Shown here one piece after another: positions 53,105 to 56,062 of a stretch of DNA of 64,000 nucleotides. The DNA is from Microcaldota archaeon. Its GTDB lineage: Archaea; Micrarchaeota; Micrarchaeia; Micrarchaeales; Micrarchaeaceae. Under the pieces are notes generated by a model. That model was not told where the DNA came from, searched no databases, and saw nothing but the letters and a program-made list of their open reading frames with translations. Made by a program: the position numbers and the translations under genes. The stretch is from NCBI GenBank assembly GCA_021818545.1, contig JAKATX010000013.1, positions 62,001 to 126,000 of the forward strand. The letters are read 5' to 3'. How positions within the stretch are numbered: the stretch's first letter is position 1; each line of letters starts with the position of its first letter.

Positions 53105-54429
53105 AATGACTCGCCCCGCAAACCCATCATTTCAATGGTGGGTTAAGGGCGTAAGAAGGTATATAAAAATACAAAATAAAACAGGGAACATTGGAACAAT
53201 CCGTGCCTACAAGTTCAGGATATATCCTGACGCAAAGAGGCAGAAGGAGATAGACGATGCCATTTACATTTCACAGAGACTGTACAACAAACTGCTGGAG
53301 AAGACGATAAATGCACATAGGAGCAATCCCGACTCAAAAATATCACAGAGAATAATAAACCAACTCCTTAATGAGATAATAAAAGAGGACAAGACATACT
53401 TGCAACTCTACGCCCATATCAGAGTCGACATACGCAACAAACTCCTTCAAACTTACCAAAACTTCTTCGAAGATGTCATCAGAAGAAATCAGGAGCAAGG
53501 ATAAATGCAGGATTCCCACGCTTCAAGTCAAAGGACAGGTTCAACTCAATAACCCACATAGAAAATAACGGTTCATTTAGGATAGATAAAGGCAGGCTAA
53601 GAATATCAAAAATAGGCACGATGAAGATAGAACAGCACAGGAACATTATCGGAAACGTGAAGACACTGACGATAAAAAGGGAGGGAAGAGACTATTATGC
53701 AATCTTCACCGCGGAGCAGGTGACCAATCCAAAGAAGACCGAGGACACAAACCCAGTCGGCATCGACATGGGACCCAACAATTTCATAGCCCTTTCGGAC
53801 GGAAAGACAATCCAGAAGCCAAAATTCTTCAGGAAGAAGGAAAAGAGGATTGCACATTGGCAACGCATAATTGCAAGGAGAGACAAAGGCTCGAAAAGAA
53901 GGGAAAAGGCAAAATTCCACCTTCAATAGGAATGGAAGAGGGTAAAAAACCAGTCAAACGACTTCATGCACAAACTTTCAACCGAACTCGCCAAGGCAGG
54001 ATACACCTCATTCGCAGTGGAAAACCTTCACATCCAAAACATGGAAAAGAACCATCGTCTTGCGCAATCAATCCATAACGCTTCATGGAACAGGTTCATA
54101 AACTTCCTTTCATACAAGGCCGAAAGTGCCGGCATGAAGGTAATTAAGGTGGACGCAAGGAACACGACAAAGGAATGCAGTAATTGTGGCAATATGCTGG
54201 AAATGCCATTATCCGTGAGGGAGTACAACTGCGGGCTATGCGGCCTACGGTTGGACAGGGACGTAAACGCATCCATAAATATACTCAACAGAGCTAGGGA
54301 GGGACACTCTCGAAGTCACGCTCAGGGAGAGGATGTAAGACCCCAACGGGAGGCAGCCCTCGGAGAACTGATAACATACCCTGCAAACGCAGGGGAAGCC
54401 AACTACCTTTAGTCGTTGGAGGATGTCAC
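53105..54429 (+). mobile_element. second, decayed TnpB-only IS605-type element
   Basis: left hairpin aacccatcatttcaatggtgggtt (53120-53144); right end AACGCAGGGGAAGCC-hairpin-GGAGGATGTCAC matches copy 1. Confidence 0.78.
53190..54412 (+). pseudogene. tnpB: tnpB pseudogene with two frameshifts
   Basis: three consecutive ORFs (to 53504; 53621-53929; 53966-54412) align to successive segments of the intact TnpB. Confidence 0.9.
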
Positions 54430-54542
54430 ACCACATGGGATCCGCAACAAGACAGCGGGAAATCACCAGACATCGCAAATGTCCGCAAATCGCCTATCTT
54501 CCTATCCCACTTATTTAAACCTTTTCATCCTAATTCATAAAG

Positions 54543-54923
54543 GTGATTGAAACGCCATCAAAGAGCACGCAGGCACGTCAAAGCAATGACATAATAAAAC
54601 CAACAATAAAGATACAGAATATCGTTGTCAGTGCAGACCTGCATGCCATAATAGATCTTTATTCTCTGTCAAGAGACGTCAAGGCCGTTGATTATGAGCC
54701 GGAACAGTTTCCAGGTGCAATTTTCAAGATAGCCGAGCCAAAGGCCGTAATAATACTTTTCAAGAATGGCAAAATGATATGCACCGGTGCCAACACTGAG
54801 TCTAATATAAAGAAAGTGCTGGACTACGCATCAAAGATAATATCCAAGTACGTGATAGAAGTAATGCCTGCCACTAAGCCCGGCGATGCAAAGAAGCCTG
54901 ATTCAAAGAAGGCGCCTGAATAA
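54543..54923 (+). CDS. tbp: single-repeat (half-length) TATA-box binding protein (GTG start)
   Basis: one TBP repeat only: IKIQNIVVSADLHAIIDLYSLSRDVKAVDYEPEQFPGAIFKIAEPKAVIILFKNGKMICTGANTESNIKKVLDYASKII; then a K/P tail and stop. Confidence 0.88.
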   Translation: MIETPSKSTQARQSNDIIKPTIKIQNIVVSADLHAIIDLYSLSRDVKAVDYEPEQFPGAIFKIAEPKAVIILFKNGKMICTGANTESNIKKVLDYASKIISKYVIEVMPATKPGDAKKPDSKKAPE

Positions 54924-54928
54924 GGATG

Positions 54929-56062
54929 TCACTTCTTAGATACTTCCTTTAGGTACCTATCAAATTCATTGAAGAATCTGCCCCATGAGTACTCTTTCTT
55001 TACGCATGCTACCCCATTCTTTCCGATTTGCTCTGCCGTGGCGGGATTTTCTGCTACCTCCACCATCTTTGATGCCATCTCCGCCTCATTGTTTACAAGG
55101 AAGCCGGTATCGCCGTTCCGTACGGTCATCCTCGGGCCACCCTCATTTACCGATATTATTGGCTTGCCACTTGCCATAGATTCCAATGGCACAAGGCCGT
55201 AATCTTCATCTATTGGGGCGTAGAGCACAGCAGTGGCTTTGGAGTAGTAATCCCTTAACCTTTCCTCGTTTACCGCCTCGACTATCTCTACATCGCCCAC
55301 CCTCTTTGACAGTTCAAGCACCTTCATATAGAAATCCAGGTAGAAACCATCCTTGGATACCGGCCCTACAAGAACAAGCTTGTAGCCCTTTACCCTCCTT
55401 TTAAAAAGTTCAAAAGCCCTGATGGCATAGTCTTGCCTCTTGTTCGGTGACATCCTGGACGGATAAAGGAAATACTTTCCGTCGCCTTTGTCCTTGTACT
55501 TCTCGTACTCCACTCCCCCGCCCAATACCCTCGCATCGTCTCTGCCTAGGTATTTAGCTATCCTAGATTGCGTGTTGCTGCTGTTGGCTACTATCATCTC
55601 TATATTCTTGACTATCTTCCGATCCATGCGCCTGACTGCTGCAGCTCCTATCCTGTATACAGGCCTCTGATAACGCTTTTTTATGCTAAGTCTGTAATTG
55701 TAAAGGTCGTACACGTCCCTGAGCGGAGTGTGACAATACCACAGCACGCGCTCGTTCTTGTTTCGTATCCAATGGCTAGGTGCTATATGTGCGTTTATAA
55801 CGTCGTAATCACCTTTCATCACGAAATTATAGAACCCGAGGCCATAGCTCAATCCTTGCGAAACCCTGCCGTACGGCATGATCCTCTGTAATCTGCCATT
55901 GCCTATTACTTCAATGTCAATGTCCGAGAATTCGCTGAAAGTGGTTTTCTTGTTATATTCAGCAGTATAAATTTTGGCCTTGTAATGCTGCGCTATCTTG
56001 AGTACCACACGTTCGGCACCGCCCTTGAGCGTAAGATTTGACTGCGCCATCACAATATTCAT
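54929..56062 (-). CDS. glycosyltransferase family 4
   Basis: FLYPSRMSPNKRQDYAIRAFELFK...DEDYGLVPLESMASGKPIISVNEGGPRMTV. Confidence 0.92.
   Translation of the reverse strand: MNIVMAQSNLTLKGGAERVVLKIAQHYKAKIYTAEYNKKTTFSEFSDIDIEVIGNGRLQRIMPYGRVSQGLSYGLGFYNFVMKGDYDVINAHIAPSHWIRNKNERVLWYCHTPLRDVYDLYNYRLSIKKRYQRPVYRIGAAAVRRMDRKIVKNIEMIVANSSNTQSRIAKYLGRDDARVLGGGVEYEKYKDKGDGKYFLYPSRMSPNKRQDYAIRAFELFKRRVKGYKLVLVGPVSKDGFYLDFYMKVLELSKRVGDVEIVEAVNEERLRDYYSKATAVLYAPIDEDYGLVPLESMASGKPIISVNEGGPRMTVRNGDTGFLVNNEAEMASKMVEVAENPATAEQIGKNGVACVKKEYSWGRFFNEFDRYLKEVSKK

What the first reader, a model, noticed from the sequence alone, without database searches (positions are those of the whole stretch)
54543..54923. 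Stand-alone half TATA-binding protein: one TBP repeat instead of two
Seen: the 126-aa ORF holds a single complete TBP lobe (QNIVVSADL...YEPEQFPGAIFKI...ILFKNGKMICTGA) followed by a K/P tail and stop. No second repeat lies in the 110 bp upstream or before the next gene at 54929. Established: archaeal and eukaryotic TBPs are pseudo-symmetric tandem repeats of this lobe, and each lobe inserts two Phe into DNA. Both Phe positions (EQFPG and ILFKNGK) appear kept here. Inference: it may act as a homodimer, as proposed for the ancestral TBP, or pair with a second half elsewhere. A symmetric TBP would leave promoter direction to TFB/BRE contacts. I do not know of a described natural one-lobe general TBP, but this was not searched.
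Basis: partly seen in the sequence, partly recalled or inferred. Interest (0 to 1): 0.92.

Follow-up and report, generated by a model that had tools for sequence, protein, structure and literature searches.

The report
Half-size TATA-binding protein working in pairs
This tiny archaeon and its relatives have only half-length versions of the TATA-binding protein that starts transcription, so two halves must almost certainly pair up to do the job, and several related lineages appear to have re-joined the halves on their own, repeating the event thought to have created the normal protein.

Summary
Window 54543-54923 (+) encodes a 126-aa protein with exactly one TBP lobe, and no second lobe lies beside it. 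The genome belongs to a micrarchaeote (Micrarchaeaceae-like) and holds a second, separate single-lobe TBP (paralog B, beside rpl21e); no two-lobe TBP was found. This is not an assembly error. Of 56 family genomes at least 80% complete, 50 have exactly two lobe matches, and every such locus I read is a separate single-lobe gene. Many micrarchaeal genomes, including one on a single contig, have just one lobe in total, so a functional TBP there would have to be a homodimer. Both intercalating phenylalanines and the TFB-binding YEPE motif are kept, TFB is normal, promoters carry BRE+TATA, and the window gene is under very strong purifying selection (dN/dS about 0.01). The most likely mechanism here is an A:B heterodimer acting as the general TBP, with direction set by TFB/BRE; dimerisation itself is inferred. 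Two-lobe TBPs in related families do not inherit the usual archaeal N and C lobes: both lobes descend from one lobe, apparently by several independent fusions. Single-lobe archaeal TBPs have been mentioned in print; their role as the only TBP, and the repeated re-fusion, I did not find described.

The parts
54543..54923 (+). Single-lobe TBP, paralog A (126 aa, GTG start; includes the stop codon)
   Evidence: Pfam TBP E 1.3e-24, one stretch; dN/dS 0.006-0.014 against two relatives
54606..54851 (+). The TBP lobe itself (Pfam TBP positions 2-85; residues 22-103)
   Evidence: G000:C2:116606-116851 lies at window 54606-54851
54693..54716 (+). YEPEQFPG: TFB-contact glutamates and the first intercalating Phe
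   Evidence: residues 51-58 of the 126-aa protein; positions equivalent to C.L3.2/C.L3.4 of PMC7221094; conservation table
54756..54773 (+). LFKNGK: the second intercalating Phe; K-N in place of the usual x-S of other archaea
   Evidence: residues 72-77; invariant Phe in all groups
54511..54519 (+). TATA-like element TTATTTAAA about 24 bp before the start codon (near-leaderless arrangement)
   Evidence: read directly; a motif of this kind is enriched before genes of relatives

Best explanation
The gene encodes one of the two subunits of this archaeon's general TATA-binding protein. Each subunit is one TBP lobe. Two lobes associate non-covalently through the strand that joins the lobes in ordinary TBP, forming the usual saddle that bends the TATA box by inserting two Phe per lobe. 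In this genome the saddle is most likely an A:B heterodimer (A is the window gene, B the copy beside rpl21e-rpo4). In sister lineages with one lobe gene it would be a homodimer. TFB binds the YEPE stirrup of one lobe, and its contact with the upstream BRE sets direction. Shown here: one lobe per gene, no two-lobe TBP found, co-occurrence of A and B, conserved contact residues, normal TFB, BRE+TATA promoters, purifying selection. Inferred: dimerisation, DNA bending, and A:B pairing as opposed to A:A plus B:B. Evolution: related families with two-lobe TBPs made them by re-fusing this single lobe, apparently more than once.
For: Only two TBP lobes occur in the genome, in separate genes. 50 of 56 family genomes at least 80% complete have exactly two lobe matches; the one-contig family genomes examined (G012, G013, G028, G034) have A and B as separate genes. 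In the sister family 33 of 59 genomes have one lobe match only. G039 (one contig), G037 and other families have a single lobe even with a lineage-specific profile at E<=10, so if TBP is a saddle it must be a homodimer there. Asn, both Phe, Pro-Gly and the TFB-contact Glu pair are kept in essentially all A and B lobes, while canonical N lobes keep the first Glu in only 16 of 29. TFB with two cyclin repeats is present in all 23 genomes searched. A BRE-like AA plus TTTATATA motif precedes genes of the homodimer-only G039 (log-likelihood ratio 194 against 45 for shuffled sequence in the 14-wide run). dN/dS is about 0.01 for A. The A locus (nuoM-nuoN-reductase-TBP A-glycosyltransferase-SRP54) and the B locus (rpl21e-rpo4-DUF655) are each conserved. 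A and B distances covary, r=0.84 over 13 genomes. Lobe trees and AU tests support derivation of both lobes of related two-lobe TBPs from one lobe.
Against: No biochemical evidence of dimerisation exists. Two AlphaFold2 monomer runs gave low confidence (mean pLDDT 52 and 58), the N-terminal half being unfolded; this is neutral but gives no positive support. Multimers cannot be predicted with these tools. The A/B covariation is confounded by shared ancestry and rate. Both A and B keep a full TFB site, so nothing in sequence forces heterodimers over two homodimers. The window's own assembly is only 60% complete.
Confidence: 0.7

Rival explanations
1. A and B do not pair with each other; each forms its own homodimer and serves different promoters, as multiple TBPs are thought to do in haloarchaea.
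For: B alone must suffice in sister-family genomes with a single lobe gene. A and B each keep all DNA and TFB contact residues. Six alignment columns are fixed differently between A and B, as expected for specialised subunits of either kind.
Against: In the window's family nearly every genome keeps exactly one A and one B, and A/B distances covary, which fits obligate partners; neither point is decisive.
Confidence: 0.22
2. A single lobe binds half a TATA box as a monomer, held in place by TFB, without a second lobe.
For: A genome with one lobe gene is formally compatible with a monomer. Other proteins with a single TBP-type lobe, such as RNase HIII, bind nucleic acid with one lobe (PMC7221094).
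Against: Promoters of a one-lobe genome carry a full-length TATA box (TTTATATA, about 8 bp) and not a half site. Two-lobe fusions in the same clade keep two nearly identical complete lobes (58-81% identity in most, 49% in one family), showing that a dimer-like saddle works there.
Confidence: 0.05
3. A canonical two-lobe TBP sits in the missing 40% of this assembly, and the one-lobe genes are accessory.
For: The assembly is only 60% complete.
Against: Near-complete and single-contig relatives in the same genus and family lack any two-lobe TBP. The only two-lobe hit in the family, G014:C43, has distinct canonical lobes on an 8-kb contig with MFS, cytochrome b and transposase genes and looks like contamination from another archaeon. 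Paralog B occupies the locus that holds the two-lobe TBP in related families.
Confidence: 0.03

Closest known systems
Archaeal TBP (two-lobe; Pfam PF00352, NCBIfam PRK00394 series)
   Same: Same lobe sequence, intercalating Phe pairs, DNA-contact Asn, TFB-contact Glu pair; co-occurs with TFB and TATA/BRE promoters.
   Different: One lobe per chain instead of two; scores 66-87 bits against NCBIfam cut-offs of 181-347 because half of the protein is absent; forms a separate sequence clade with FKNGK in place of xSGK.
Single-lobe / monopartite TBP-domain proteins of archaea mentioned by Ravarani 2020 (PMC7221094), citing Brindefalk 2013
   Same: One TBP lobe in an archaeal protein.
   Different: The available text is one sentence. 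It does not say which archaea, or that such a protein is the only TBP. Brindefalk 2013 was not held. Weak 95-118-aa TBP-like proteins beside normal two-lobe TBPs in other DPANN may be what was meant.
Proposed ancestral single-lobe TBP before the internal duplication (e.g. PMC4910066, PMC12917281)
   Same: A stand-alone lobe serving a TBP role.
   Different: That is a hypothetical ancestor; here it is a living system. Most likely a secondary return to one lobe, though a never-fused relic is not excluded.
RNase HIII and DNA glycosylase TBP-type domains
   Same: Single helix-grip lobe binding nucleic acid (literature).
   Different: They are domains of enzymes; the present protein is a stand-alone lobe closest to true TBP by sequence.

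Membership tests
General TBP | TBP lobe sequence at curated threshold | tested here: met
   86-91 bits against a cut-off of 22.9 for both paralogs
General TBP | Two tandem lobes in one polypeptide | tested here: not met
   One lobe in a 126-aa ORF; second gene likewise one lobe
General TBP | Two DNA-intercalating Phe per lobe and minor-groove Asn | tested here: met
   Invariant in all A, B and other single lobes tabulated
General TBP | TFB-contact Glu pair in the stirrup (C.L3.2, C.L3.4) | tested here: met
   YEPE in 20 of 21 A and 27 of 27 B lobes, the exception YEPD; positions from PMC7221094
General TBP | TFB partner encoded in the same genome | tested here: met
   Two-cyclin TFB in G000 and 22 relatives
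General TBP | TATA/BRE promoters in the genome | tested here: met
   AA..TTTATATA in G039 and a similar motif in G012; the window sample is too small to be significant
General TBP | Binds and bends TATA DNA, recruits TFB/RNAP | not testable with these tools
   needs EMSA, FRET or in vitro transcription
General TBP | No other TBP in the genome | tested here: met
   Near-complete relatives hold only single-lobe genes; own assembly 60% complete
Monopartite TBP-domain proteins (Brindefalk 2013) | Single TBP domain, archaeal | tested here: inconclusive
   Feature met here, but the paper's list of proteins could not be read

The most novel reading that the evidence does not exclude
The single-lobe TBP of this DPANN clade was never fused: it is a living relic of the pre-duplication TBP. 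The ordinary two-lobe TBP of other archaea and eukaryotes arose after this clade split off, and the clade then replayed the fusion several times on its own.
Probability: 0.12. Interest if true: 0.97.

Novelty: new variant of a known kind. Interest (0 to 1): 0.84.

Why it matters
TBP is treated as a universal two-lobe protein, and its origin by duplication of a homodimeric lobe is a standard inference with no living example to test it on. Here are living archaea in which one-lobe subunits appear to be the only TBP, sister lineages with one subunit (homodimer) or two diverged subunits (probable heterodimer), and others in which the lobes have been fused in tandem again. That makes the dimer-to-fusion step, the origin of lobe asymmetry, and the question of what sets promoter direction (TBP asymmetry or TFB/BRE) directly testable with natural proteins of about 100 residues.

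Tried and rejected
Assembly error or deletion: rejected, since many assemblies agree and both loci have conserved neighbours. Pseudogene: rejected, dN/dS about 0.01. Split canonical TBP (N half plus C half in two genes): rejected, as A and B are sister paralogs of one lobe type, A being one clade at 100/100 beside B. Hidden divergent second lobe: not found at E<=10, apart from one 15-bit hit with an internal stop in G223. G014 two-lobe TBP as a counterexample: probable foreign contig. AlphaFold2 monomer: two runs, low confidence, not used; no fold search was made with it. Promoter symmetry as a homodimer test: the TATA core is near-palindromic in both one-lobe and two-lobe genomes, so it does not discriminate, and the M. 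jannaschii-like control gave no usable motif in my simple gene set. One shared re-duplication for all two-lobe TBPs of the clade: not rejected in a first set with single lobes included (p=0.14 overall, 0.22 for Micrarchaeota alone), rejected in the wider set of two-lobe proteins only (p=0.0005). A first RpoB tree used a wrong frame for G218 and was redone.

Full report
OBSERVATION. The ORF at window 54543-54923 (+) starts with GTG and gives 126 aa. It has one Pfam TBP match covering positions 2-85 of 85, E=1.3e-24. No second lobe lies upstream (a broken TnpB-type transposase) or downstream (a glycosyltransferase on the other strand, 54929-56062). A TATA-like element TTATTTAAA lies at 54511-54519.

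WHOLE GENOME. The assembly (711 kb, 13 contigs, 60% complete) holds exactly one other TBP lobe: a separate single-lobe gene on contig C11 (L001:1426-1770, 114 aa, 53% identical to the window lobe), next to rpl21e, DUF655 and rpo4. I call the window gene A and the C11 gene B. The organism is a micrarchaeote: all 80 best relatives of A in genome contigs come from Micrarchaeota, Micrarchaeaceae or (apparently mislabelled) Marsarchaeota MAGs, the nearest 99% identical.

DISTRIBUTION. Among 56 genomes of the same family at least 80% complete, 50 have exactly two lobe matches, and the loci read are separate single-lobe ORFs. In the sister family 33 of 59 genomes have one match and 24 have two. Families f14-f20 and f23-f27 mostly have one single-lobe ORF of about 100-180 aa. 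Families f3-f13 have one ORF of 185-264 aa with two lobes (16 loci read). A lineage-specific profile at E<=10 finds no second lobe in 17 single-lobe genomes searched, among them G039, which is one contig; the only extra hit was a 15-bit fragment with a stop in G223. Outside the phylum, a small neighbouring phylum also has mostly single-lobe TBPs, and G305 is a single-lobe genome in a mostly two-lobe phylum. Other archaea sampled have ordinary two-lobe TBPs.

FUNCTIONAL RESIDUES. The minor-groove Asn, both intercalating Phe, the Pro-Gly after the first Phe and the Gly of the FKNGK loop are invariant in all single lobes tabulated. The two Glu that contact TFB in the C lobe of ordinary TBP (positions C.L3.2 and C.L3.4 of Ravarani et al. 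2020, PMC7221094) are present in all B lobes and in 20 of 21 A lobes, the exception having Asp at the second. In canonical N lobes the first of them is Glu in only 16 of 29. TFB with two cyclin repeats is present in all 23 genomes searched.

SELECTION AND SYNTENY. For A against its two nearest usable relatives dN/dS is 0.006 and 0.014; more distant ones have saturated synonymous sites and dN below 0.1. A sits in a conserved block nuoM-nuoN-reductase-TBP A-glycosyltransferase-SRP54-GTPase (gene names by resemblance): the glycosyltransferase is near A in 79 of 91 loci and the reductase in 70. B, and the single- or two-lobe TBP of most other families of the clade, sits divergently beside rpl21e-rpo4-DUF655. 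So B is the ancestral locus and A an added copy, and the change between one and two lobes happened in place.

PROMOTERS. In G039, which has only one lobe gene, a motif AA..TTTATATA is enriched before genes, log-likelihood ratio 194 against 45 for shuffled sequence in the 14-wide run, 249 in the 22-wide run. The AA lies where a BRE is expected. G012 (A and B) and G062 (re-fused two-lobe) show related motifs. Promoters are thus full-length TATA boxes with an asymmetric upstream element. The TATA core is nearly palindromic in all, so this does not tell a homodimer from a two-lobe protein.

MECHANISM. A functional saddle needs two lobes. Where only one lobe gene exists, a homodimer is the simplest reading. 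In the window's family two diverged lobes are both kept almost everywhere and their distances covary (r=0.84, 13 genomes), which fits an A:B heterodimer, although shared ancestry alone could give that correlation. Dimerisation, bending and pairing are inferences. AlphaFold2 monomer models were of low confidence and are not used.

EVOLUTION. N and C lobes of micrarchaeal two-lobe TBPs are 58-77% identical in all families read but one (f6, 49%), against 41-58% in nearly all other archaea sampled. In trees of lobes, all lobes of the clade (single, N and C, marked by FKNGK) form one group apart from canonical N and C lobes (96* in the quick tree; 100/97* in the careful tree). Holding all N lobes on one side and all C lobes on the other is rejected (AU p=0.002). 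So these two-lobe TBPs did not inherit the ordinary N and C lobes: both lobes descend from one. Several proteins have their own N and C lobes as sisters (f9, f12, f4, the f45-f106 group, G277). One duplication for all of them is rejected in the set of two-lobe proteins (AU p=0.0005), though not in an earlier set that included single lobes (p=0.14). In the RpoB tree, single-lobe families branch first in Micrarchaeota and the states need at least five changes; with two-lobe outgroups the shortest reading is one loss of a lobe at the base and about four re-fusions, against seven losses if two lobes were ancestral (the count of seven is mine). In the neighbouring phylum two genomes among single-lobe relatives have fused lobes 80-81% identical, and others carry a second single-lobe paralog, a parallel A/B-like pair. 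Repeated gene conversion between lobes could mimic part of this, but does not explain the single-lobe genomes. A never-fused relic is not excluded: canonical N lobes as one clade is not rejected (p=0.38).

LITERATURE. Ravarani et al. [quoted passage not shown] that study, Brindefalk et al. 2013, was not held, and my memory of its abstract is only that proteins consisting of a single TBP domain occur in some archaea. Ten searches found no paper describing a one-lobe protein as the only TBP, nor re-fusion. A comparative DPANN study reports TBP as conserved without comment (PMC8407392). The library is limited to open-licence papers, so absence there is weak evidence.

VERDICT. The gene is one subunit of what is very probably a two-subunit general TBP, in a clade where TBP went back to (or never left) one lobe and was fused again, apparently more than once. 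I file it as a new variant of TBP, not as an ordinary member, because the two-lobe criterion is tested and not met.

Noticed in passing
L020 (G059, sister family f2), contig end: A partial upstream lobe runs in frame through a short linker into a complete lobe; the shared 98 nt are identical. It looks like a very fresh tandem fusion of the single-lobe TBP, but lies at a contig end and could be an assembly artefact.
   Followed up: partly
L443 (G277:C8:8500-11900): A 726-aa ORF with four divergent TBP lobes (31-68 bits) that lack the QFPG motif in part; G277 also has an ordinary re-fused two-lobe TBP.
   Followed up: no
L446-L447, L451-L452, L457-L458, L454-L455, L461-L462: In a second DPANN phylum, genomes carry two single-lobe TBPs, one usually beside rpl21e and a second of its own clade (100/98 support): a parallel to the A/B pair.
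   Followed up: partly
L283, L285, L289-L292 and others: TFB of the window's family and sister family carries a K/S/A-rich N-terminal extension of some 60-100 aa before the zinc ribbon; most other Micrarchaeota lack it, G126 being an exception. Start codons were not verified.
   Followed up: no
window 53106-54412: A TnpB-type transposase gene broken into three ORFs has inserted between the reductase and TBP A, just upstream of the TATA-like element; the near relatives L034 and L035 lack it.
   Followed up: partly
L190:2991- (G001:C3): A divergent third TBP-like domain (YDPNISNA in place of YEPEQFPG, 27 bits) in a same-genus genome.
   Followed up: no
G249, G268, G337, G366, G380, G393: Weak TBP-like matches (20-24 bits) in ORFs of 95-118 aa beside normal two-lobe TBPs; possibly the single-domain proteins mentioned in the literature.
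   Followed up: no
L206 (G014:C43): Canonical two-lobe TBP on an 8-kb contig with MFS, cytochrome b and transposase genes in a micrarchaeal MAG; probably contamination from a Thermoplasmata-like archaeon.
   Followed up: partly
L134-L136 (G136), L116 and L203 (G140): Family f15 genomes with three single-lobe TBP genes each, two nearly identical.
   Followed up: no
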